Below, piece by piece: positions 34,634 to 46,072 of a DNA stretch of 64,000 nucleotides (position 1 is its first letter; every line of letters begins with the position of its first letter). This DNA comes from an uncultured Bacteroidales bacterium (GTDB lineage Bacteria > Bacteroidota > Bacteroidia > Bacteroidales > UBA932): contig CALUPB010000009.1 in assembly GCA_944322585.1 (NCBI GenBank), positions 1 to 64,000 on the forward strand, in the 5' to 3' direction. The notes under the pieces were generated by a model. It worked only from the letters and a program-made list of their open reading frames with translations. It had not been told where the DNA came from and made no database searches. Position numbers and translations under genes: made by a program.

Positions 34634-36520
34634 ATGAATATAAAGGAAACATTTTTTATCTTGTCATCAATAGCGGTGCTGGCAACGGCCTGCCAGGAGC
34701 ATGAGCCGGAGAACGGAATGGTGATGCCTGCACCTCAGAATATCGTATGTACCAATTCATCGGGGACTCTGACCTTTTCGTGGGATGAGGTCGAAGGCGC
34801 GGAACAGTATGCGGCAAGGCTTGTCACGGCTGATGATGACGGGCTTGTGGAACTGCAGTATGTGACCTCCGCCACGGTGACATTTTCGGAAGATCTGGAG
34901 TCCGGGGTGTCGTATGTCTGCAAGGTGAGGGCGATGGCCGGGATGGAATATTCCGAGTTCGTGTCTTCGGAGCCTGTGGTTTTCCAGGGAGGGGAGACTC
35001 CTGACCCGGGGACCGATCCTGAGCCTGTGGAAGGGGCATACGAGGCGATGATGATACCCGCACATGAGGACGAATATCTTGCGGATACGCCTCTTGCATT
35101 CCCGGGGGCCGAGGGCGGCGGAATGTATGTCACCGGAGGCCGCGGCGGAGAGGTGCTTCATGTCACGTCGCTCGCCGATGACGGCTCATCCGGAACTTTC
35201 CGCTGGGCAGTGGAGCAGTCCGGGCCGAGGATTATCGTTTTCGATGTTGCAGGACGGATTGACCTGCGGGAGGAACTCGTAATCCGCAACGGCGACCTTA
35301 CCATAGCCGGACAGACCGCTCCCGGCGACGGCATCTGTATAGCGAAAAATACAGTACGGGTCAATGCGGACAATATTATAATAAGGTTTATGCGCTTCCG
35401 TCTCGGGTATGACGGCTCGGAGTCCGACAGCGACGGTGAAGATACGATATGGGGACGATATCATGAAGACATTATCCTCGACCACTGTTCGATGTCATGG
35501 TCCGTTGACGAGGTGGCTTCTTTCTATGCCAACAGGAATTTCACCATGCAGTGGTGTCTGCTTGCTGAGGCCCTGCGCAATTCCGGGCATTCCAAGGGAG
35601 GGCACGGTTACGGAGGCATCTGGGGCGGACGTAATGCGTCGTTCCACCACAACTTTCTGGCCCACAATGACAGCCGCAATGCCCGTATCGACCATCCGGG
35701 CATCTATATCCAGGAGGACAGGGATTACCGTACCGACTATCGCGGAAATGTCGACTACCGCAACAATGTCATCTACAACTACGGCAGCAATTCCACCTAT
35801 GGAGGAGAGGACGGACATTTCAATATGGTAGGAAACTATTACAAGTCCGGACCCGCGACAACGACCAACGGCAACAAGATAAGGAAGTATTTCGTGGATG
35901 CGTACTGGTATAATGCGGACAGCGAGGTGGGTTCGGCATATCCGGAACTGTATATGGAGGACAACTACAATACCGACGGTATAGATGACAAGTATCCGAA
36001 AGGTATCTATTACCATGACCAGAGTAAGTACGGGACCAATCCGGAAGGGGTTGTGCTTGAAGCGCCGCTCCCGATACGTGCCGATGATGCCACGCTGTGC
36101 CATGTCACTACCCATCCGTCTTCGGTTGTCTTCGATCCTGTGGTCGGATATGCCGGTGCTTCCCTCGTGCGCGATGATGTGGATGTCAGGGTGGCAGACA
36201 ATGCGGTCAAGGGCAACTATTCCCATGAAGGCAGCAATGGCAGCACCGGAGGGCTTATCGACTCCCAGAATGATGTCGGAGGCTGGCCGGAATATTCTCA
36301 GGATACCGTCAACGAGGCCAATGACAAGACCGATGAAGACGGTGACAATATCCCGGACTGGTTCGAGGCTCTGTACGGACAGGACGGCAACCTGGAGCCT
36401 GACGCCAAGACCATCGACATCCACGGGCGCTATACCGACTTCGAGATGTATCTCCACTACCTCGTGCGCAACGTGGTCGCCGCCCAGTCCGCATCCGGGA
36501 CCTATACCCCTCTCGACTGA
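34634..36520 (+). CDS. PL1 pectate lyase lipoprotein with FN3 domain
   Basis: The 628-residue protein has a lipobox ending at Cys20 (SSIAVLATAC), a fibronectin type III domain at about 30-120 (NSSGTLTFSWDEVEGAEQYA to YVCKVRAMAG), a Pro/Gly/Asp linker (PDPGTDPEPVEG) and a PL1 β-helix from about 155: GGGMYVTGGRGGEVLHVTSL, IAGQTAPGDGICIAKNT, LDHCSMSWSVDEVASFYANR and GGIWGGRNASFHHNFLAHND. Its lyase part is close in motif order to that of the preceding fusion, suggesting duplication. The acidic DEDGDNIPDWFEALYG near the end is a calcium-binding type repeat. It would act on pectate at the cell surface. Confidence 0.92.
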   Translation: MNIKETFFILSSIAVLATACQEHEPENGMVMPAPQNIVCTNSSGTLTFSWDEVEGAEQYAARLVTADDDGLVELQYVTSATVTFSEDLESGVSYVCKVRAMAGMEYSEFVSSEPVVFQGGETPDPGTDPEPVEGAYEAMMIPAHEDEYLADTPLAFPGAEGGGMYVTGGRGGEVLHVTSLADDGSSGTFRWAVEQSGPRIIVFDVAGRIDLREELVIRNGDLTIAGQTAPGDGICIAKNTVRVNADNIIIRFMRFRLGYDGSESDSDGEDTIWGRYHEDIILDHCSMSWSVDEVASFYANRNFTMQWCLLAEALRNSGHSKGGHGYGGIWGGRNASFHHNFLAHNDSRNARIDHPGIYIQEDRDYRTDYRGNVDYRNNVIYNYGSNSTYGGEDGHFNMVGNYYKSGPATTTNGNKIRKYFVDAYWYNADSEVGSAYPELYMEDNYNTDGIDDKYPKGIYYHDQSKYGTNPEGVVLEAPLPIRADDATLCHVTTHPSSVVFDPVVGYAGASLVRDDVDVRVADNAVKGNYSHEGSNGSTGGLIDSQNDVGGWPEYSQDTVNEANDKTDEDGDNIPDWFEALYGQDGNLEPDAKTIDIHGRYTDFEMYLHYLVRNVVAAQSASGTYTPLD

Positions 36521-36561
36521 TACGGCAGCACGTCAGAACATGCCTCGTTTTCTGTAAAAGT

Positions 36562-36617
36562 GGTACAAGTACCGGTGATGTGTATATGGCGCCATATTTC
36601 GTTCCGATGTATATTTG
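36562..36617 (+). promoter_or_regulatory. Promoter region with two palindromes
   Basis: GGTACaaGTACC (36562-36573) and the perfect 14-bp ATATGGCGCCATAT (36584-36597) lie upstream of a TATATTTG -7 box (36610-36617). The ATG follows 17 bases later. The palindromes cover the -33 region and could be operators. Confidence 0.5.
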
Positions 36618-36634
36618 CAGAAAAATCATAGCGT

Positions 36635-37456
36635 ATGAAAAAGATTCTGTTTTTATTATCGATTGCAACAATGATTAATATCCAAGGAATTATGGCACAG
36701 GAAAAGATTACGCAGACTGCCGGGCACGTGCAGTTGGGAGAATTTGCCCCGAAATTTGCCGAACTTAACGACGACGTGCTTTTCGGGGAGGTATGGAACA
36801 GTCCGGGACTCAGTCCTCATGACCGGAGCATGATAACCATAGCGACACTTGTCGGCAAGGGAATCATCGATTCGTCGCTGACACATCATCTCCAGTTCGC
36901 CAGACAGAACGGAGTAACCCGTACCGAAATATCGGAAATGTTGACGCACATCGCCTTTTACGCAGGTTGGCCGAATGCATGGGGCGCATTCCGGCTGGCG
37001 AAGGACGTGTGGGCCGACGACACGGCTGAAGCAGACGACAGGGCCGCTTTCCAGCGGGAGATGATATTCCCTGTCGGAGAGCCGAATACCGCATATGCCA
37101 GGTATTTTATCGGCAACAGTTACCTGGCTCCGATATCCACGGAACAGATACCTTTCAATAATGTCACTTTCGAACCGGGGTGCCGCAACAACTGGCATAT
37201 CCACCATGCCACTAAAGGTGGCGGACAGATGCTGGTCTGCGTGGCCGGCAAGGGCTGGTATCAGGAAGAAGGCAAGCCTGCCGTACAGATGCTTCCGGGC
37301 GATGTCATCCACATTCCCGCCAATGTGAAACACTGGCACGGTGCGGCAGCGGACAGCTGGTTTGCACATCTTGCCTTTGAAATACCGGGAGAAAACGCGT
37401 CCAACGAATGGCTGGAGCCTGTGACTGACGAAGAATACGGCAGACTCGGGAAATAG
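36635..37456 (+). CDS. Exported carboxymuconolactone decarboxylase-cupin protein
   Basis: A 273-residue two-domain protein with a signal peptide (MKKILFLLSIATMINIQGIMA). The first half is a CMD/AhpD-like domain (LNDDVLFGEVWNSPGLSPHD, SMITIATLVGKG, LTHHLQFARQNGVTRTEISE, AFYAGWPNAWGAF), without the CxxC of peroxidase-type members. The second half is a cupin with metal ligands in GCRNNWHIHHATKGGGQMLV, LPGDVIHIPANVKHWHGAA. Such fusions are often quinone- or lactone-related; the activity here is unknown. It follows the pectin enzymes but has its own promoter, so membership in the pectin locus is uncertain. A terminator follows at 37511-37545. Confidence 0.85.
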   Translation: MKKILFLLSIATMINIQGIMAQEKITQTAGHVQLGEFAPKFAELNDDVLFGEVWNSPGLSPHDRSMITIATLVGKGIIDSSLTHHLQFARQNGVTRTEISEMLTHIAFYAGWPNAWGAFRLAKDVWADDTAEADDRAAFQREMIFPVGEPNTAYARYFIGNSYLAPISTEQIPFNNVTFEPGCRNNWHIHHATKGGGQMLVCVAGKGWYQEEGKPAVQMLPGDVIHIPANVKHWHGAAADSWFAHLAFEIPGENASNEWLEPVTDEEYGRLGK

Positions 37457-37510
37457 GGCAGAGTAAATCCCGCCTGGCGTGAAACAGACGGGCAAGGAGC
37501 ATGTCAATAT

Positions 37511-37545
37511 GGGGGTGACTCAAAAGTGAAAGTCATCCCCTTTTT
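37511..37545 (+). terminator. Intrinsic terminator
   Basis: GGGGTGACT and AGTCATCCCC form a stem with one bulge, followed by TTTTT. It closes the CMD-cupin transcript. Confidence 0.7.
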
Positions 37546-37703
37546 CCGTGTTTTTCCGTGAGATAAACTTCAGTTCCTCTTTCGAATATTCGATTCCCAG
37601 AGAGTTATCAAACCTTTTGGGGCGGCCTCTTTAGGTGTGCAAGAATGTTCATTCCTGTTTCATCAGCCTGACCACATTCCATAATATCAAGCTCGGGTGA
37701 TTG
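37520..37703 (-). pseudogene. Degraded gene fragment with an RGRPKR motif
   Basis: On the minus strand the last reading, RGRPKRFDNSLGIEYSKEEL, runs to a stop at 37520. An adjacent frame upstream reads PELDIMECGQADETGMNILA. One frameshift joins them, while stops lie further upstream. This looks like the tail of a decayed gene, possibly of a mobile element. It marks the left edge of the ATPase/RyR module. Confidence 0.4.
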
Positions 37704-37794
37704 TTAATGCTGATTAAAATTAATCGTGTATGGTTTCATGGACGCGCTCGGATATCTTTCCCGCCTTCGGGTATTGAATCATTCGGGATTTATC

Positions 37795-37953
37795 CGTAAG
37801 TTTGTCTTTTAGGCAAGACAAAACTGAAAGACTATGGCAGAGGAGACATTTTCGGAGCCGCCCTTGTTACCCAAGAAGGAGTCGAACTTACCATCATCGC
37901 CCAAGGCTGGAAACAACTATACCGCAGATTGAAAACAAACCATACGCTAACTC
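37795..37953 (+). other. Intergenic stretch with a short coding-like fragment
   Basis: The region before the DUF4062 ATPase gene reads LKDYGRGDIFGAALVTQEGV and continues ELTIIAQGWKQLYRRLKTNH in one plus frame without a start codon; a stop precedes it. The composition looks like true coding sequence. It may be a relic of a lost gene. No promoter box of good quality is seen for the ATPase gene. Confidence 0.3.
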
Positions 37954-40900
37954 ATGACCGCCAACAATATAGACAACCGCCACATCAGGGTATTCATATC
38001 CTCCACATTCAATGACATGCAGTCCGAGCGGGACGAACTCGTCTCCAAGATATTCCCGATACTGCGGAAAAAGGCTGCTGAAAGAAATGTCACAGTCACC
38101 GACATCGACCTCAGGTGGGGCATCACGGAGGAAGAATCCCGCAACGGAAAAGTGATAGACATCTGTCTGGACGAAATCGAAAAATCGCACCCGTTCTTCA
38201 TCGGACTGCTTGGCAGCCGGTACGGCTGGACCCCTGCGGAAGACAAGGATGCGGACTATGGAACCGTCATAGAACCTCGGCACGGGTGGGCCACCGATGA
38301 CATCAGGAACGGGCTCAGCATCACCGAGATGGAAATACGGTACGGTGCCCTGCGCAGCGACAGCCCGGTTTACGGCAGCTTTTTCCTGAAAGACTGCGAT
38401 GAAAGCGGCATCGACCCGAGACAGGCCAGGCTGAGACAGGAAATCCGGGAACAGGACCGGTATGAAGTGCACGTCTACGGCTCTATGGCTGAGTTCACGG
38501 AACAGGTCATCGGGAGCTTCGACAGACTGCTCGACACACTGTACCCTGAAGGAAGCGGCGACAGTCTCGAAAGCCGGCGCGCCCAACAGAGATACTATCT
38601 GCAGCAGAAGACCATGTATTACATACCGGACAAGGCTGCGGACAAAAGGATAGAGGACTTCCTGCATGGCTCGCGGAGCAATCTTCTCGTCACCGGGACA
38701 AGCGGTATGGGCAAATCCACCCTGCTGGCCTGGCACGCACTCAGACTCATGGAAGACGTGAATCAGGACGTAATAGCATTCTTTGCAGGGAACAGCGCTC
38801 ACAATGCCACTTTCGCGGATGCCGCCCGGTGGGTCTGCCTGAATCTTTCAGACTTCCGCGGGATAGAATACGACGCTTCGGAAAATCCCTTGATACAGCT
38901 CGGGAGAATGGCCGGACAGACAGCATCCGGCAAAAGGCTCGTCATAATAATCGACGGGATAAACCAGCTGTCAGACAGCGGAGGCAACGACAGGAATCTG
39001 GTATGGTGGCCGGAATGGCCGGAAAATGTCAAGGTGATATTCTCGTCTCCGCAGAATGCGGAAATCATAAAGGAACTCGACCTTCGCGAATGGGAGCTTG
39101 CCAGCATCGGGAAAATGACGATAGACGGCCGAATAGAGCTGGCCGGGAAATACTTCAGCCAGTACAGGAAAGAACTGTCCCGGGAACAGAAAGACCTGAT
39201 AGGGAACGACTGGCCGCTGCTCGGTAATACTCTGATTTACGTCAGTTTCCTTGACGAACTCCGGCGTTTCGGCTCGTTCGGCGATCTGGACAGGTTCATT
39301 TTCTCTCTTGCCGGATGCAGGGATTCAGATGAATTTTTCTCGAAACTGCTGGACCGGCAGGAAATCCTGTTCAAGGACAGCAAGGCAGACGGGCTTGTCC
39401 GGGATGTGATGACATTGATCCATCTTTCAGAGTCCGGACTGACGGAAACACAGTTGCTTTCCATCACCGGGGCGTCCAGACTTTCGCTTTCACAGCTTCT
39501 CGGCATGAACGACATGCACCTTGCAGTCAGAGGAGGCAGGGTGACGGAAGCGCATTCTATGTTCAGAAATGCCGTCTCGGCAAAATATCTCACCGACAAG
39601 GACTATGAGACGGCCCAAAGGAAAAGGCTCATAAGATACTTCGAAAACAACGGAGATGACCGGCAGGGACTGACAGAGCTCCCGTACCAATACGGCATGA
39701 CGGAAGACTACGATTCACTTTACTGCTGCATCTGCAGGAAAGAGGTCCTTTCACACTTCACGGGAAGCGGCAGGAAGGACATTTTCGCTCGGTACTGGAG
39801 AAAGCTCACGGACATCAATCCCCGACGGTACGACATCCTGGGCTGCGTGTATGACCTCATAAAAGACAGCAAGACGGAACTGACTGCCGGTCTGCGGTAC
39901 ATCTGGCTACCTATGTTCTCAAACGATGTCCTGCAACTGTCGAACATAGCCTCCGCCTACATGAAATCGCCGGAAACATCCCGGAGACTCGCGGAAGCGA
40001 TGCTGAAAGTCCTTGAAAACGAGCAGGACGATGAATACGACATATTCAGACGTTCCGCTGCTGCCACTCTGGCTTCCGCCGAAAGTCTCAGCCACAACTG
40101 GAAGAATGCGCTCCTGCATTTCCGGCAGATACTCGAAGAAGGCGGGGAGGATATGGGCTCTGCGAAGGTCAGCAACATAGGGGAAATGTTTCTTTCGATG
40201 TACGAGGATATGAAGGACGAAAAATATCTGGAGTACGCTGAAAGCATCCTCAAAGCCGTCATGCAGACAAGGGAAAAACTTTATAAGGACAATCCTTGCA
40301 CCGAACTTGCAACGGCTTATGCCAACTACGCTGCCGCACTTCACTACGGGTCTGTAGACAAAAGCACGGAATACAGCTTGAAAAGCATCGAGGTGTACAA
40401 GGCCATCGAAGGGGCGGACAGTCTCGATGCAGCCATAGAATACAGCAACCTGGCGATCGTATATGCCGGCATTCAGCCGCAGAAGGCCCGGGACTACGGA
40501 GAAGAGGCCTTGCGCATATTCAGGGTGGTCGGAGGAGAGGAATCCGTACATACCGTGGAGACTCACCTGCTTTTAGGCAAGATCTGCATGAATCTCGGAG
40601 ACTGGGAAAGTGCCTGCAGTCATTATGAGGCGGCATCCATAAGACCGGAGACGGCAGAGAATGCAGGGTTGGGGACTTACGGCGTATACGACCTCCTGTT
40701 CAAGGCCCAGTACTTCAGCGGAAGATACGAGGAAGCCGTCCGCACCATGGAAAAGACCATCGGCCTCGCCAGCAAAGACAGCCGGGAGAATATCCGCAGA
40801 TGGGCCGATGCCGGGAAAGCGTACCTGAAACTCAAGGACTCCGCTTCCTGCCGCCGCTGCTATGAAAAGGCGATAAGTCTTTCGATGGAGTCGGGAGACC

Positions 40901-42534
40901 ACGGTGCGGAACTGGAGAACCGTTACTATTATTCGATGGCACTCAACGACATGGGTGGTGCCGGAGAGTCGAACGAAATGCTTTCCCTCATCATCTCGAA
41001 AGCCGGAGAGTACGGTCTCGAAGAAAGCAAGGTCGTGGCATACGCGCTCTACAACAGGGCCATGTCCGGCATCCTTACCGGAGAAAAGCCTCAGGACGGT
41101 ATCGCCGACATCGAGAGGGCGATAGCCATCCTTGAAAACCGGTACAGCGACGATGTCCGGCTGATCGAAGAGTACCGGAACGGGCTGGAGATGGCCTGTG
41201 CGAAGCTCAGCGGGGAGAGTCAGGAGAAAGCAGAGATTCCGGAGGCGGAAGAGATGAAGACTTACCTCGGAGAGGGTCTGGAGGAAATTTCTGAGATTTT
41301 CGCCTCGGGAATGCTCGATTTCAGGCAGCATCTGTACCCGTCTGCCGTATACAAGTTCGAAACCGTGCTGGAACGCATCGGGGACAGCGGAAACCTTTCT
41401 GCACAGGGTCTTGCAAAAAGGTATCTTGCCTTTGCCGAAGAACTGATTTTCCGCTCCGGTGAAGGACAGTACACTGCAGACGGCATCAGGGATACATACC
41501 TCGCCGCCGTAAATGACGCTATGGCGGACAACAATATGGTTCTGGCCCGCGGGACAAGCCACGATTATGCCGAATTCTGCTGGCATCTCGGGGATTTCCA
41601 TGCGGCGGAGAACGGCTACTGGGACGAGATTCTGTTCGGGTATTACGGTCAGGACTTCTATTCGTTCGAATCGGCCAGGGCATTCTACAATCTCGGCCCT
41701 GCCATCGAAAAACAGTATGATTCCGATTCTTCGGCCCCGCTGATGCTCGCGCTGTATTCTCTCAGCTATGCCGTCAACCTCAATTCCGGGACCGTATCCG
41801 AAGAGCTGAATGAGGGGCTGGAGCAAAGTATCGGATACTACGCCGAAGAAGCGGGAACAGAAGGGACGTATACCATAAAGCCTGGAGAGTCCGTAAAGGC
41901 AGTCCTCGCATATCTCGGCACATCGGACTACAGCCGCAAATACCTGATGACAATGGTATTGGCCTTCTGGATGGTCCGATATTACTCCGTTTCGGAGGCA
42001 AAAGACAAGGCGACGGAACTTGAATTCAGGTGCGAGTACGTGCGGGCTGCGATTTCCGAAGGACAGCTCCTCGCAGCCAAAGATACGATAGACAAAAGCC
42101 TCCCTCTGTTCGAAGAATACGGAGACCCCGGTCTGCTCGAAAGGATACGGTTACTTGCGTGCTGTTTCCACGTCCATGTACACGACACCGATGCTGCATA
42201 CGAAGTCTGCCGGAAATACGGTATCAGTGATGGTATAGTCATGCTTCTGGAGGAGTCGTGCTGTCCTTGCACCGGCGCATACAGGAAAGGCAGTACTGAA
42301 GATGCCGGGAAAGCTGCGGCGGAACTTATGGAAAAAGACGCGCAGGAGCTGACGGAAAGCGAATGCTACGATATGATCCTGTACAACGACCTCGTCGGCA
42401 ACAGGTACGAAGCCCGGAAATATGCTGAAATCTGGAAAGGGAAATCACTCGAAAGCAGGCCGGACTACGCTGATCTTTTCCGTCCGGCATATGAAAGGAT
42501 AGCCGGTATCATAAATCTTCCGGAACAGGACTAA
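37954..42534 (+). CDS. DUF4062/STAND-type ATPase with a long TPR-like tail
   Basis: A 1526-residue cytoplasmic protein. Residues 8-100 form a DUF4062 domain (HIRVFISSTFNDMQSERDEL, VTDIDLRWGITEEESRNGKV, PFFIGLLGSRYGWTP). A NACHT/AAA-like NTPase follows, with Walker A GTSGMGKST (248-256), Walker B RLVIIIDGINQL (about 327-338) and an aromatic WWPEWPENVKVIFSS sensor strand. From about 680 to the end there are helical repeats with TPR character (ATAYANYAAALHYG, AIEYSNLAIVYAGIQPQKAR, AVRTMEKTIGLASKDS). This order, DUF4062-NACHT-TPR, resembles eukaryotic NPHP3 and TEP1 and prokaryotic STAND sensors. The next gene starts 13 bases after its stop. A role in sensing infection or stress is inferred. Confidence 0.85.
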   Translation: MTANNIDNRHIRVFISSTFNDMQSERDELVSKIFPILRKKAAERNVTVTDIDLRWGITEEESRNGKVIDICLDEIEKSHPFFIGLLGSRYGWTPAEDKDADYGTVIEPRHGWATDDIRNGLSITEMEIRYGALRSDSPVYGSFFLKDCDESGIDPRQARLRQEIREQDRYEVHVYGSMAEFTEQVIGSFDRLLDTLYPEGSGDSLESRRAQQRYYLQQKTMYYIPDKAADKRIEDFLHGSRSNLLVTGTSGMGKSTLLAWHALRLMEDVNQDVIAFFAGNSAHNATFADAARWVCLNLSDFRGIEYDASENPLIQLGRMAGQTASGKRLVIIIDGINQLSDSGGNDRNLVWWPEWPENVKVIFSSPQNAEIIKELDLREWELASIGKMTIDGRIELAGKYFSQYRKELSREQKDLIGNDWPLLGNTLIYVSFLDELRRFGSFGDLDRFIFSLAGCRDSDEFFSKLLDRQEILFKDSKADGLVRDVMTLIHLSESGLTETQLLSITGASRLSLSQLLGMNDMHLAVRGGRVTEAHSMFRNAVSAKYLTDKDYETAQRKRLIRYFENNGDDRQGLTELPYQYGMTEDYDSLYCCICRKEVLSHFTGSGRKDIFARYWRKLTDINPRRYDILGCVYDLIKDSKTELTAGLRYIWLPMFSNDVLQLSNIASAYMKSPETSRRLAEAMLKVLENEQDDEYDIFRRSAAATLASAESLSHNWKNALLHFRQILEEGGEDMGSAKVSNIGEMFLSMYEDMKDEKYLEYAESILKAVMQTREKLYKDNPCTELATAYANYAAALHYGSVDKSTEYSLKSIEVYKAIEGADSLDAAIEYSNLAIVYAGIQPQKARDYGEEALRIFRVVGGEESVHTVETHLLLGKICMNLGDWESACSHYEAASIRPETAENAGLGTYGVYDLLFKAQYFSGRYEEAVRTMEKTIGLASKDSRENIRRWADAGKAYLKLKDSASCRRCYEKAISLSMESGDHGAELENRYYYSMALNDMGGAGESNEMLSLIISKAGEYGLEESKVVAYALYNRAMSGILTGEKPQDGIADIERAIAILENRYSDDVRLIEEYRNGLEMACAKLSGESQEKAEIPEAEEMKTYLGEGLEEISEIFASGMLDFRQHLYPSAVYKFETVLERIGDSGNLSAQGLAKRYLAFAEELIFRSGEGQYTADGIRDTYLAAVNDAMADNNMVLARGTSHDYAEFCWHLGDFHAAENGYWDEILFGYYGQDFYSFESARAFYNLGPAIEKQYDSDSSAPLMLALYSLSYAVNLNSGTVSEELNEGLEQSIGYYAEEAGTEGTYTIKPGESVKAVLAYLGTSDYSRKYLMTMVLAFWMVRYYSVSEAKDKATELEFRCEYVRAAISEGQLLAAKDTIDKSLPLFEEYGDPGLLERIRLLACCFHVHVHDTDAAYEVCRKYGISDGIVMLLEESCCPCTGAYRKGSTEDAGKAAAELMEKDAQELTESECYDMILYNDLVGNRYEARKYAEIWKGKSLESRPDYADLFRPAYERIAGIINLPEQD

Positions 42535-42547
42535 AATTGCAGGAACC

Positions 42548-43213
42548 ATGAAAACAGCAGATGTAAAAGATATGATCAACGAAACGCTCGCCTCGGCGGC
42601 ACTGCCGGAAGATGCGGAGATAAAGGAACTTCTTGCCCGGATGGACGCGGCAAACGGAGACGAGCGGGAAAGCGCGAAGGTTGCAGAGGAAATCGCCGGG
42701 CTGCTCAAACGTATCGGCACGGTTCCATTGAACCTCGACAGCAACCAGGATCTGCTTCTTGCCCACACGATTCTGGTGAAGTCGCTGAACGACAACGATA
42801 CGGCACTCCTGAAATACGCCCTGATAGCCATGCACAACCGTTTCATGCTCGGGGACATGCTGGAACAGGGTTTTGCCGCCGAGGCGCTGATGAAGATCTT
42901 CATTCACGGCAAGGAACATGTCATGAAACTTCTGGCGGAGTTTGCGGGGACAGCTGCGGAAGATTCTTTCTACGGTCGTTTTTTAGACAGGGAAGACATG
43001 GAGTCTGCCGACGGAAGCCGGCTATATGCGGAGCTCATGAGGGCTGTGCTTCCCTCCCTGCACTGGCTCGTGCAGACATACCCGGACTATCCCTGCTTCA
43101 TGACGCCGGAAGAGATTGATAATTTTCAGGATACGGTCTGCAGCGGTAAAGGCGGCAAGGATGCTCTGCCGAAATTTTCAGCCTTCTGCAGGATGCTGTA
43201 CGCAGTCATATAG
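42548..43213 (+). CDS. Helical partner of the STAND-type ATPase, unknown family
   Basis: The 221-residue protein is predicted all-helical and acidic, with no signal peptide or membrane segment (MKTADVKDMINETLASAALP at the start; ALLKYALIAMHNRFMLGDML, FAAEALMKIFIHGKEHVMKL in the middle). It begins 13 bases after the ATPase gene and is clearly cotranscribed. The C-terminal half contains VLPSLHWLVQTYPDYPCFMT. No known domain is recognised. It could be an adaptor, an inhibitor or an effector of the ATPase. Confidence 0.7.
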   Translation: MKTADVKDMINETLASAALPEDAEIKELLARMDAANGDERESAKVAEEIAGLLKRIGTVPLNLDSNQDLLLAHTILVKSLNDNDTALLKYALIAMHNRFMLGDMLEQGFAAEALMKIFIHGKEHVMKLLAEFAGTAAEDSFYGRFLDREDMESADGSRLYAELMRAVLPSLHWLVQTYPDYPCFMTPEEIDNFQDTVCSGKGGKDALPKFSAFCRMLYAVI

Positions 43214-43227
43214 GCTTTTTCGCCCCC

Positions 43228-43302
43228 TGTCATTTCGCGCTTAGTCGAGAGATCTGCCCATATTATCATCCACGGACTTCCCCGACTACGCTCGGGATGA
43301 CA
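43228..43302. repeat. REP-like inverted repeat between convergent transcription units
   Basis: TGTCAT (43228-43233) is matched by ATGACA (43297-43302), and CCCGActacgcTCGGG (43281-43296) forms an inner hairpin. The flanks TTCGCGCTTAGTCGAGAGATCT and the ending GGGATGACA resemble the dispersed intergenic repeats of many Bacteroidetes. It may serve as a bidirectional terminator. Confidence 0.6.
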
Positions 43303-43311
43303 AAGTGAGAA

Positions 43312-45312
43312 TCAGTCCTCGACCACACTCTGGATGACATTGGTCGGGATGACAATAGTGAAGCCGGCAATGGCCATCAGGTAGGGCAGGTTGACTATCA
43401 CCTGCCTGTCCTTGAATTTCTCGCTCTCCGCCAACTCATGGTAAGGGACTATCAGAGGATGGATACGGTGCACATCGTCTCTTGTCTTCCCGTATTTCCA
43501 GCCTTCGATGGAACGCTCGGCATTCCACCGGTATTTCTCCATCCGCATCAGGACCGACAGCCGGGCATTGTCCAGAGCCTTGCGGAAGTCCTCCGGTGAG
43601 ACAGCCTTCCCCGCCGCGTGCGATGAGCGCATTACCCTGTATCCCAGCGTGTTCAGATATGTCATGTAAGCGTCTACCTGATATCTGTTGGCCCAACGCA
43701 TGTTCTCCTCCATCTCCATCCAGCTGCCTGCGGCTTCCGCCTTCCCTTTTGCGAACGCGGAGACATCGCCCGCCTTCATGTAGCCGTACATTTCACGGAT
43801 AAATCCTTCCCGGACATACTCCTGATTCACATATGACGGGAGTTCGTCCAGGAGCATGGACTTCGAAATGCCCTGCTCCAGCATGCCGAACACCTTGACA
43901 TTCCTGTAACGCCCCTTGTCATTGTGTATTATCCTTCCCATATCTGTCTGCATCTCCTGCCTGATGAGTACCCTCGCTTCGCTCCGGTATATCTCGCCCG
44001 GAAGATTCAGACCGAGGATGATGCTCTCGTCCGGGTCACTTATGCAGACTGCCACCGTAAGCATCTGCCGGGAATCGGCGGCCCATTGCACCAGACTTTC
44101 CCGGACCGGTGAACTGCACAGATCTTCGTTACGGTAATCCACCCGTATGTCATCTATTGCATCAATATACGGGAACTGTGCCATGAAATGCTGTTTCAGC
44201 GGCTCCACATCCCTGTCTATCACGGTTATCTCCGTCCTTATGCGTGACCCGCTTTCCGCAGCATCGTCATAATTGGCATAATGGCACACTCTCATGGCTT
44301 CCAAAAGCAGGGCCTGTCCCATGGCACCGAAGCCGGCGATGACCAGATGCACATGCCTGTCATTGCCTTGCAATCCACCGTCAGGAGAAAGCCGTATCGG
44401 GTCATAGTCCACAGAATCATACAGCCTGTCTTCATCTTCTTCCACGGTGTAGTGAGTCCACAGACGGCGTGCCCAGTTCTCATACAGGTTGAAAGGCCTG
44501 AAATAGATTCCCTTCAACTCCGCCCGTTCCTTGTCGGACAGCGCCAGTTTCTGGATCACGCTGTAGGACCCTATCCGCTCCGACAGGGTGTAGACGGGGA
44601 GTTTGTGACCTGCAGCCGCCGGGCCTTTCAGTCTGCCGACACTGCGTACGCACTGTATGTTTTTCGAATCCCTTCCATAATCCCCCTCCTCACCGAGGAT
44701 ATACACTTCCTTCGCCTTGTCTATGTTCAGGCGCCGGAGTTCCTCCATGGACTCTATGTTGCCGAAATAAATGTACACCTGCCGCTCCTCTTCCCTGTCC
44801 AGACTTGCCTGCAGACCGTGGCGCACCTTCTCGCTCTCACGGCTGCTCATGACGACTACAGGCGCTTCCGGGTCGATCCTGTGCAACTCCCTTATGAGAC
44901 TGACGATGATATCCCCGCAGCCGATTATCACATAATGGCCGCTTATCGACTTATAGTACGCCTTGCCCGTACGCACGGTCTCGACGCGGCGTTCGATGAT
45001 GTTCGATATGGTGGATATGAGGACTCCTCCAAGCAGGACGGAACCCAGCAGACTGACAATGCTTACAACCAGCCTGTTGCCCCAGCTTTCCTGGGCAAGC
45101 TGGTTCCCGGGGTCCACGAAATTGTTGTACAGCACCCACATCTGTTCGGCCCATCCGCCGTTCTCGCTCAAGGCGATACCCGAGAATGTCACGACTATAA
45201 AGGCAAAGAGAAGTACCCCGGAAATCACCGCCACGAGCAGTGTAAGTTGCCCCTTGAGTCCGCCGGAAATGGTCCGGTCTATGAATTCCTGAGAAAGGAT
45301 CTTCCGTTTCAT
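43312..45312 (-). CDS. CASTOR/POLLUX-like RCK ion channel with C-terminal RyR domain
   Basis: A 666-residue membrane protein. Two helices (about 23-46 and 81-105) flank a re-entrant loop with DPGN (67-70), the filter signature seen in CASTOR/POLLUX channels. Two RCK/TrkA-N Rossmann domains follow, with IIGCGD (129-134) and VIAGFGAMG (324-332). The end (591-655) is a RyR domain: WNAERSIEGWKYGKTRDD, IHPLIVPYHELAESEKFKDR. RCK domains gate channels in response to nucleotides or ions; RyR domains are proposed ligand binders. Its start overlaps the stop of the small RyR gene in ATGA. It points toward the STAND-type ATPase pair, ending 98 bases from it. A regulated cation channel is the most likely function. 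Confidence 0.85.
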   Translation of the reverse strand: MKRKILSQEFIDRTISGGLKGQLTLLVAVISGVLLFAFIVVTFSGIALSENGGWAEQMWVLYNNFVDPGNQLAQESWGNRLVVSIVSLLGSVLLGGVLISTISNIIERRVETVRTGKAYYKSISGHYVIIGCGDIIVSLIRELHRIDPEAPVVVMSSRESEKVRHGLQASLDREEERQVYIYFGNIESMEELRRLNIDKAKEVYILGEEGDYGRDSKNIQCVRSVGRLKGPAAAGHKLPVYTLSERIGSYSVIQKLALSDKERAELKGIYFRPFNLYENWARRLWTHYTVEEDEDRLYDSVDYDPIRLSPDGGLQGNDRHVHLVIAGFGAMGQALLLEAMRVCHYANYDDAAESGSRIRTEITVIDRDVEPLKQHFMAQFPYIDAIDDIRVDYRNEDLCSSPVRESLVQWAADSRQMLTVAVCISDPDESIILGLNLPGEIYRSEARVLIRQEMQTDMGRIIHNDKGRYRNVKVFGMLEQGISKSMLLDELPSYVNQEYVREGFIREMYGYMKAGDVSAFAKGKAEAAGSWMEMEENMRWANRYQVDAYMTYLNTLGYRVMRSSHAAGKAVSPEDFRKALDNARLSVLMRMEKYRWNAERSIEGWKYGKTRDDVHRIHPLIVPYHELAESEKFKDRQVIVNLPYLMAIAGFTIVIPTNVIQSVVED

Positions 45313-45608
45313 CGGTCAGACTTTTTTATTGAGTATCCTGATTTGAGGATGAATCTGAGGGTCTGGATGGCCGTTTTTCTGTCATACTCCTTCTCCGATT
45401 CAGGCAATTGGTCATACGGCACGAGACAAGGATGGTGTTTCAGCTTATCGTCACGTTTTTCTCCCCACACCCAGCCTTCCGCCATGCGGGCAGCTGCCCA
45501 TACTTCATGTACATTTTCCGCCATACGCTCCGAAAGCGCCATGATATCCTCCGGCAACTCCACGTCATCGGCAAAAACCGGGGATGGTTTGTAGGCATTG
45601 TTCTTCAT
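45309..45608 (-). CDS. Small RyR-domain protein
   Basis: From the ATG at 45608 the product is 99 residues and nearly all RyR domain (31-93): VHEVWAAARMAEGWVWGEKR, DDKLKHHPCLVPYDQLPESE, YDRKTAIQTLRFILKSGYSI. It aligns position by position with the RyR domain at the end of the downstream channel (shared GW-x-YG/WG-x-x-RDD, HP-x-LVPY-x-x-L-x-ESEK, DR). The frame stays open upstream to 45803, but that part has no conserved character. Its stop and the channel start overlap, so the two are translationally coupled. Possibly a ligand-binding subunit or competitor of the channel. Confidence 0.85.
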   Translation of the reverse strand: MKNNAYKPSPVFADDVELPEDIMALSERMAENVHEVWAAARMAEGWVWGEKRDDKLKHHPCLVPYDQLPESEKEYDRKTAIQTLRFILKSGYSIKKSDR

Positions 45609-45803
45609 ATCTGGAATTTTCCACAAGATACGCTTTTTCCCGCTTATGATCAACACCCGGAGCCGGAATCCGACTCTCCGATTGCCATACTCACTTTGCC
45701 GGGGGCTTACGATATTTTCCGCATGAAAAGAATAGGATTGAATGTCATAAACAGTAATTGCTGACAGAAACCGATACTGTCGGGGAACGGCACAGGCGGG
45801 CAT

Positions 45804-46072
45804 ACTGGGGATATTGCGGGCGTGCGGCTAAAAGTACAAGCATTGCGATAATTTTTGACATCGATATAGCAGTCAATGTTCTAATTTCGCATATCCGAAA
45901 TAGGGGACAGTCCGGAGGAAACCGGCTCTCCACTTCCGGGTAAGGCGACAATTGATAACACTAAGAAGTTGTTTTGAATTTTTGCGATATAAATTATCGC
46001 CGAAAAGGCAAATAAAAGAATCTTTGGAAAAATTCAAGACAGTTTCTGATATTTTAACCAAAAAGTTCTTAT
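45804..46072 (+). other. AT-rich intergenic region before susC
   Basis: This stretch separates the divergently read small RyR gene and susC. It contains AT-rich motifs such as GATAATTTTTGAC (about 45847) and AATCTTTG (46019-46026), but none matches the promoter pattern well. Nothing else is recognised. Confidence 0.4.

What the first reader, a model, noticed from the sequence alone, without database searches (positions are those of the whole stretch)
37954..45608. Candidate undescribed system: DUF4062-STAND-type ATPase facing a RyR-domain RCK ion channel
Seen: a 1526-residue protein with DUF4062, Walker A GTSGMGKST and a long helical repeat tail is coupled (13-base gap) to a 221-residue unknown protein. 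Facing it, a 99-residue RyR protein is coupled by an ATGA overlap to a two-helix, two-RCK channel ending in a second RyR domain. Known: STAND NTPases are common sensors in prokaryotic immunity, RCK domains gate channels, and RyR domains outside animals are proposed ligand binders. Inference: the ATPase senses a trigger and a nucleotide-type signal, read by RyR and RCK domains, opens the channel and stops growth.
Basis: partly seen in the sequence, partly recalled or inferred. Interest (0 to 1): 0.85.

Follow-up and report, generated by a model that had tools for sequence, protein, structure and literature searches.

The report
NADase switch paired with RyR-domain channel
A bacterium, probably of a group common in animal guts, carries a four-gene unit that may sense an invader, turn the cell's NAD into an ADP-ribose-type messenger and use a piece related to the animal ryanodine receptor to open an ion channel; it has not been tested in the laboratory.

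Summary
The genes are there as described: a DUF4062-STAND-TPR protein and a 221-aa partner, converging on a 99-aa RyR protein and a two-helix, dual-RCK channel with a C-terminal RyR domain. They look like one unit: in a goat-reticulum Bacteroidales contig (L132) relatives of all four stand in one co-directional run. Of 25 genomes holding the RyR-tailed channel, 12 have TIR or DUF4062 within 10 kb of it (0.38 expected); one control family, N6_Mtase, gives 0 of 25. TIR and DUF4062 replace each other beside the channel, though 54 of 100 channels have neither in reach.

Two 2026 preprints give the chemistry: DUF4062 is a TIR-like NADase; phage RyR-domain proteins bind or cleave 2'/3'-cADPR. The catalytic Glu is present, and four RyR ligand residues recur at matching spacing in 98 of 109 channel RyR domains. 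The window's own channel has Lys at the first.

Best reading: a Thoeris-like system in which a STAND-controlled NADase makes an ADP-ribose-type messenger that opens a CASTOR/GsuK-like channel, the small RyR protein being buffer or eraser. Shown: genes, linkage, motifs, fold, cassette-like site. Inferred: messenger, gating, anti-phage role.

The parts
37954..42534 (+). DUF4062-STAND NTPase-TPR protein, 1526 aa: predicted sensor and NAD-cleaving signal generator
37978..38343 (+). DUF4062 (TIR-like NADase) domain, residues 9-130
   Evidence: matches the TEP1 chain 11gz, E 7.4e-27
38332..38334 (+). Glu127, aligned with catalytic Glu1008 of TEP1 (second Glu of SITEMEIRY)
   Evidence: alignment; I set the chain-to-TEP1 numbering offset (893) by hand from R908, R954 and R976, which PMC13174449 names
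38695..38721 (+). Walker A GTSGMGKST of the STAND ATPase
   Evidence: sequence
42548..43213 (+). 221-aa partner of the STAND protein, predicted all-helical at low confidence; function unknown
   Evidence: no family hit; one convincing homologue found, directly behind the STAND gene in L132; model
43312..45312 (-). Two-helix, dual-RCK ion channel with C-terminal RyR domain, 666 aa: predicted effector
45103..45114 (-). Pore-loop motif D67-P-G-N, comparable to the predicted CASTOR filter AD(S/A)GNHA; no TVGYG
   Evidence: Asp in 76 of 100 channels at this column, the other three positions vary more
43339..43602 (-). RyR domain of the channel, residues about 571-658; ligand positions K593, W596, H618, D635
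45309..45608 (-). Stand-alone RyR protein, 99 aa; ligand positions H34, W37, H59, D76
36521..46072 (.). Stretch absent from the same place in 4 of 5 congeners examined, in which the fn3 gene (34634-36520) is followed directly by SusC (46073); it also holds a carboxymuconolactone decarboxylase/cupin gene (36635-37456) that need not belong to the system

Best explanation
A two-step, NAD-based signalling and cell-arrest system, most likely against phages. (1) The TPR tail of the STAND protein, perhaps with the 221-aa partner, recognises a trigger [inferred]. (2) ATP-driven assembly of the STAND module brings DUF4062 (TIR-like) domains together and switches on NAD+ cleavage [enzyme class and catalytic Glu shown by homology; activation inferred]. 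(3) The product, ADP-ribose or a cyclic ADPR isomer, is the messenger [inferred]. (4) It binds the RyR domain at the end of the dual-RCK gating ring and opens the two-helix pore, so that cations flow, the membrane depolarises and growth stops [domains and ligand residues shown; gating and ion inferred]. (5) The 99-aa RyR protein, which has the full His-Trp-His-Asp set of the phage enzyme RyDEP, lowers the messenger by cleaving or holding it, setting a threshold or resetting the switch; alternatively it is a second sensor subunit [inferred]. In other genomes TIR proteins stand in the place of the DUF4062-STAND generator while the RyR-channel stays.
For: Relatives of all four genes in one co-directional run in L132 (STAND 524/1547 = 34% identity; partner 31%). 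Within 10 kb of the channel in 25 genomes: TIR_2 10 (expected 0.29, P 3e-14; in one of the ten, G313, the only near match is below the curated cut-off), DUF4062 4 (0.11, P 2e-6), either 12 (0.38); N6_Mtase control 0 (0.43; 82 hits). In the pooled set of 100 channels, 28 of the 46 with at least 8 kb on both sides have TIR or DUF4062. DUF4062 in the same run as the channel in 9 of the 12 loci that have it; TIR in the same run in 30 of 101. Catalytic Glu in 9 of 11 DUF4062 domains (not L055, L121, perhaps by misalignment) and 53 of 53 TIR segments, duplicates included. RyR ligand set HWHD in 98 of 109 channel RyRs and 45 of 54 small RyRs, at the spacing 0/3/25/42 of RyDEP H75/W78/H100/D117. RyR sites more than 10 kb from the channel lie by TIRs in 4 of 7 cases. 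Fold: GsuK (opened by ADP and NAD+), Slo1, CASTOR. Cassette-like site.
Against: I found no experiment on any of these proteins. The two DUF4062 enzymes tested in PMC13174449 make linear ADPR and nicotinamide, NWD1, NWD2 and NPHP3, which share the DUF4062-ATPase layout, showed no hydrolysis there, and TEP1's domain made no further derivative: a cyclic messenger is not established, and DUF4062 could merely deplete NAD+ or be inactive. The window's channel has Lys at the H75 position (as does L033), so its ligand could differ. 54 of 100 channels have neither TIR nor DUF4062 within 10 kb, partly because contigs end, but also 18 of 46 with long flanks. At 5 kb DUF4062 alone is not significant (1 of 25, P 0.06). 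Only one control family was run. No relative of the channel was found in viral contigs or plasmids, and PADLOC gives no convincing match. In the window the two pairs are convergent, so not one transcript.
Confidence: 0.58

Rival explanations
1. NAD+ depletion plus nucleotide-sensing channel: the DUF4062 domain simply destroys NAD+ (as Swarozyc does), and the channel reacts to the changed NAD+/ADP/ADPR balance through its RCK and RyR domains; there is no dedicated messenger.
For: KpSwz and TEP1 hydrolyse NAD+ to ADPR. GsuK, the best structural match, is opened by ADP and NAD+.
Against: A suicidal NADase would not need a conserved channel and a RyR protein beside it; TIR and DUF4062 interchange next to the same channel family, as in messenger systems; the RyR ligand residues are those that hold cADPR/ADPR in RyDEP.
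Confidence: 0.2
2. Channel and RyR pair are a free-standing regulator of ion balance; nearness to TIR and DUF4062 comes only from shared life in defence islands.
For: 54 of 100 channels have no TIR or DUF4062 within 10 kb; some sit by genes that look like housekeeping (MutS-like in L037, DUF4301 in L107).
Against: N6_Mtase, a family with many restriction methylases, is never near (0 of 25; one family only). Same-run arrangements with small gaps in 30 TIR loci and 9 DUF4062 loci of 101. Whole unit recurs in L132.
Confidence: 0.12
3. The small RyR protein is an antitoxin-like inhibitor and the pair a toxin-antitoxin module that the STAND protein releases by protein contact, without a small molecule.
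For: The small RyR gene overlaps the channel start; 59 of 100 channels have a second RyR ORF within 1.5 kb.
Against: Of 80 channels with at least 1.5 kb on both sides, 32 have no such ORF (48 of 80 have one); RyR ligand residues are conserved in both proteins.
Confidence: 0.08

Closest known systems
Thoeris (TIR ThsB makes 2'/3'-cADPR or a related signal; ThsA effector)
   Same: NAD-derived messenger logic; TIR proteins stand beside the channel in many loci; effector has a ligand domain
   Different: Generator here is DUF4062-STAND; effector is an RCK channel with a RyR domain, not SIR2-SLOG or macro type (abstract of PMC11204291 seen in a search listing) or other types recalled
Swarozyc (DUF4062 NADase, PMC13174449)
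   Same: DUF4062 domain with the catalytic Glu
   Different: STAND-TPR instead of the portal-binding AUX domain; partner channel and RyR genes, which the main text does not mention (0 occurrences of RyR or ion channel; its supplement was not seen)
RyDEP and phage RyR proteins (PMC13232231)
   Same: Same Pfam domain and the same four ligand residues by spacing
   Different: There a phage counter-defence; here host-encoded and, in one copy, fused to a channel
GsuK and CASTOR/DMI1 dual-RCK channels
   Same: Two pore helices and two RCK regions; D-x-G-N-type pore motif as in CASTOR
   Different: Extra C-terminal RyR domain; sequence similarity weak (E 0.002-0.01)
TEP1/NPHP3-type animal proteins
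   Same: DUF4062 next to a NACHT-like ATPase (PMC13174449)
   Different: Bacterial, beside a channel gene

Membership tests
Swarozyc | DUF4062 domain with catalytic Glu | tested here: met
Swarozyc | C-terminal AUX (winged helix, portal-binding) domain | tested here: inconclusive
   1526 aa with STAND ATPase and TPR; no AUX model was at hand, so judged only by architecture, which differs
Thoeris | TIR ThsB gene | tested here: not met
   0 TIR_2 matches in the window's genome assembly, 93.5% complete; DUF4062 instead. TIR present in many relatives
Thoeris | ThsA effector of a known type (SIR2-SLOG, macro; others recalled) | tested here: not met
   Pfam of the four proteins
Thoeris | ADPR-type messenger activates the effector | not testable with these tools
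   needs biochemistry
RyR (PF02026) domain family | Match above the curated cut-off and H-W-H-D ligand set | tested here: met
   116.4 and 40.4 bits vs 27.4; HWHD in the small protein, KWHD in the channel
Dual-RCK channels | Two pore helices plus two RCK folds | tested here: met
   model and fold search
Canonical K+ channels | TVGYG filter | tested here: not met
   VDPGN at the pore
Avs/AVAST STAND systems | Match to a defence-library STAND/Avs model | tested here: not met
   PADLOC gives only weak TPR (7.5e-5), mad8 (0.0028) and STAND_TPR (0.014) hits
Anti-phage system | Protection in plaque assay | not testable with these tools
   needs experiment

The most novel reading that the evidence does not exclude
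This is a bacterial forerunner of cADPR-to-ryanodine-receptor signalling: an NLR-like DUF4062 NADase makes an ADP-ribose messenger that directly gates a CASTOR-like, possibly Ca2+-permeable channel through a RyR domain, with a free RyR protein as the built-in eraser, and TIR or DUF4062 generators plugged in interchangeably.
Probability: 0.4. Interest if true: 0.95.

Novelty: new variant of a known kind. Interest (0 to 1): 0.85.

Why it matters
Whether the RyR domain of ryanodine receptors is a receptor for ADP-ribose-type messengers is an open question; PMC13232231 says its structure supports future studies of it. Here evolution has fused that domain to an ion channel and, in many genomes, placed it beside NAD-cleaving immune-type enzymes, in Bacteroidales and in two contigs titled Spirochaetes, giving small bacterial proteins on which the question can be tested directly. 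It would also add a channel-type effector and a STAND-type generator to NAD-based bacterial immunity, and suggests a role for phage RyR proteins as decoys of the same signal.

Tried and rejected
Viral and plasmid origin: no channel relative in two scans of viral contigs or in plasmids. A lost catalytic His in all channels: first thought from the window alone, rejected when 107 of 109 channel RyRs kept His; only the window and L033 have Lys. General defence-island effect: tested with one family, N6_Mtase, not supported. More DUF4062-like enzymes beside channels without TIR: nine candidate neighbours compared with DUF4062 and TIR profiles gave at best 38% probability (L088; DUF4062), against 0 of 120 random neighbours above 50%, so not claimed. 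The 221-aa partner: model of low confidence (pLDDT 70.9, two sequences) and no fold match at E <= 0.001; a search of 393 genomes of the order found the window and two weak partial hits. Distance test at 5 kb for DUF4062 alone is not significant (1 of 25, P 0.06); the test uses the start of the match, and the gene is 4-5 kb long. Reverse direction: 14 further regions, nearly all drawn from the DUF4062 places away from the known channel loci, were fetched; L160 has a channel-like gene with two RyR domains on the same strand, about 460 bases from DUF4062; L158 has a channel-like gene without RyR; in the other 12 my profiles saw no channel and no RyR, and in 4 of them no DUF4062 either. NCBIfam named none of the eight proteins tried. 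Two surveys of NAD- and NTP-dependent conflict systems do not mention RyR or DUF4062 in their main text (passages only, PMC9503650, PMC7159879). Not in print: searches listed no paper on this combination in the held library; a 2015 survey of nucleotide-centred conflict systems (Burroughs et al.), which as I recall discussed prokaryotic RyR domains, is not held, so priority for the general idea may lie there.

Full report
What is there. The first is DUF4062 + STAND-type ATPase + TPR (the ATPase models score below their curated cut-offs, but Walker A at residues 248-256 is plain). The second (221 aa) has no family. On the other strand a 99-aa RyR protein overlaps the start of a 666-aa protein by ATGA. 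That protein has two pore helices, two RCK regions and a C-terminal RyR domain. A 50-sequence alignment gave a confident model (pLDDT 85.3, pTM 0.84) whose best solved matches are GsuK, Slo1 and LjCASTOR. GsuK is opened by ADP and NAD+ (abstract and outline of PMC3510474). The pore has VDPGN rather than TVGYG; CASTOR's predicted filter is AD(S/A)GNHA and CASTOR is Ca2+-selective (passages of PMC6697748). The Asp is kept in 76 of 100 channels and the rest of the motif varies more, so ion selectivity is not predicted here.

Is it one system? Channel relatives occur in 32 of 393 genomes of the order at E <= 1e-10; in 25 of these, the window's own included, the channel carries a RyR domain; in the other 7 it does not, and none of their 8 loci showed TIR or DUF4062. 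I read neighbourhoods of up to 20 kb and, separately, the best 80 of 210 relatives in titled genomes. All 80 of those carry a RyR domain. Together that makes 105 loci; without four duplicate sequences and one channel under 560 aa, 100 channels remain: 34 with TIR, 8 with DUF4062, 4 with both and 54 with neither within 10 kb, contig ends hiding some. Of the 46 with at least 8 kb on both sides, 28 have TIR or DUF4062 and 18 do not. In nine loci DUF4062 lies in the same co-directional run as the channel with gaps up to 200 bases (L038, L055, L089, L099, L101, L121, L132, L133, L137), and in 30 of 101 non-duplicate loci a TIR gene does. L132 (goat reticulum, Bacteroidales RGIG3228 by title) holds DUF4062-STAND 1528 aa, a homologue of the 221-aa partner, a 99-aa RyR protein and the channel in a row. 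Pfam confirms the first and third; its channel had no Pfam hit and was recognised by my own profiles and by tblastn.

Chance and island effects. With the positions of TIR_2 (54), DUF4062 (17) and N6_Mtase (82) matches in the 25 genomes I computed the expected number of channels within 10 kb (genome sizes as printed, rounded). TIR: 10 against 0.29 (one of the ten, G313, by a match below the curated cut-off); DUF4062: 4 against 0.11, or 3 of 24 without the window (P 1e-4); either: 12 against 0.38; N6_Mtase: 0 against 0.43. At 5 kb TIR stays significant (8 of 25) and DUF4062 does not (1 of 25). RyR sites more than 10 kb from the channel or on another contig are near a TIR in 4 of 7 cases. On a quick tree of 100 channels the labels change many times (31 changes for four states, 8 between TIR-only and DUF4062-only channels), which fits exchange of generators; the tree has long branches and I use it only for that.

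Chemistry. PMC13174449 (preprint; parts 1-2 of 6 and passages read) shows DUF4062 to be a TIR-like NADase in bacterial Swarozyc and in human TEP1, turning NAD+ into ADPR and nicotinamide; human NWD1, NWD2 and NPHP3 showed no hydrolysis there. The window's domain matches the TEP1 chain 11gz at E 7e-27. The chain's numbering, which I fixed by three arginines named in the paper, puts catalytic Glu1008 on the window's Glu127; of the other two arginine positions checked by eye, R976 is kept and R908 and R954 are Asn and Lys here. PMC13232231 (preprint; parts 1-2 of 6 and passages read) shows phage RyR-domain proteins that cleave or hold 2'/3'-cADPR through H75, W78, H100 and D117. The small RyR protein here has H34, W37, H59 and D76, the same spacing. 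I had no RyDEP sequence, so the correspondence rests on spacing and on the family alignment. Across 109 distinct channel RyR domains 98 have the full set. The window's channel and L033 have Lys in place of the first His. In the paper six of eight other phage homologues bound the signals and none of the others cleaved them despite conserved sequence, so these residues do not tell cleavage from binding.

Origin. In four of five congeners examined (G413, G404, G418, G412) the counterpart of the fn3 gene (34634-36520) is followed within about 30-145 bases, counted between aligned ends, by the counterpart of SusC (46073 onward), while the window has 9.5 kb between them; in G414 the region is rearranged. 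So the unit sits in a stretch inserted into, or lost from, an otherwise continuous operon; the carboxymuconolactone decarboxylase/cupin gene lies in the same stretch and had no match in the five loci. Two channel loci are titled Spirochaetia and Treponema (L089, L114), so the family appears to cross phyla.

Mechanism and verdict. Shown: the genes, their linkage, the enzyme class and catalytic Glu, the ligand residues, the channel fold, the cassette-like site. Inferred: trigger, messenger identity, gating, ion, effect on the cell, anti-phage role. It works like Thoeris (TIR, messenger, effector) but fails Thoeris's gene-defined features, and its layout differs from Swarozyc. I call it a new variant of NAD-messenger signalling, with a channel effector and a STAND-type generator. 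That STAND proteins such as Avs sense phage parts through their repeat tails is from memory, not from calls.

Noticed in passing
L055:7145-9739 (+): A RelA/SpoT-like domain, a weak TPR match, a TRPM-type SLOG domain and a RyR domain in one 864-aa protein directly before a RyR-channel; L062 has a RyR protein of 896 aa near its channel.
   Followed up: partly
L041:3120-7150 (-), L106:13587-16097 (+), L110:10780-12747 (+), L144:12173-14449 (+): Proteins with a signal-peptide-like start and the motif GYVKTKGR, in L041 and L106 with long NPHP3-like TPR arrays by Pfam, recur beside the TIR genes of RyR-channel loci; an exported partner of a TIR system would be odd.
   Followed up: no
L124:13366-16602 (+), L112:4660-9465 (+), L088:9485-12082 (+): nSTAND1 ATPases near TIR genes or RyR-channels, suggesting that a STAND sensor and the NADase can be separate genes.
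   Followed up: no
L101:12033-15347 (+), L038:5568-8066 (+): AAA ATPases with AAA_lid_6 next to two of the DUF4062-channel pairs.
   Followed up: no
phage records MT836850.1 and MT837259.1 (H1, H2): Two short unannotated phage records from human faeces encode RyR proteins 51-54% identical to the small RyR protein over nearly its whole length; the other 38 listed of 254 records reach 44% at most. Possible decoys against this signal, or host DNA in the record.
   Followed up: no
window 37457-37953: About 500 bases without a clear gene between the cupin gene and the STAND gene, with only short ORFs; may be debris of an insertion.
   Followed up: partly
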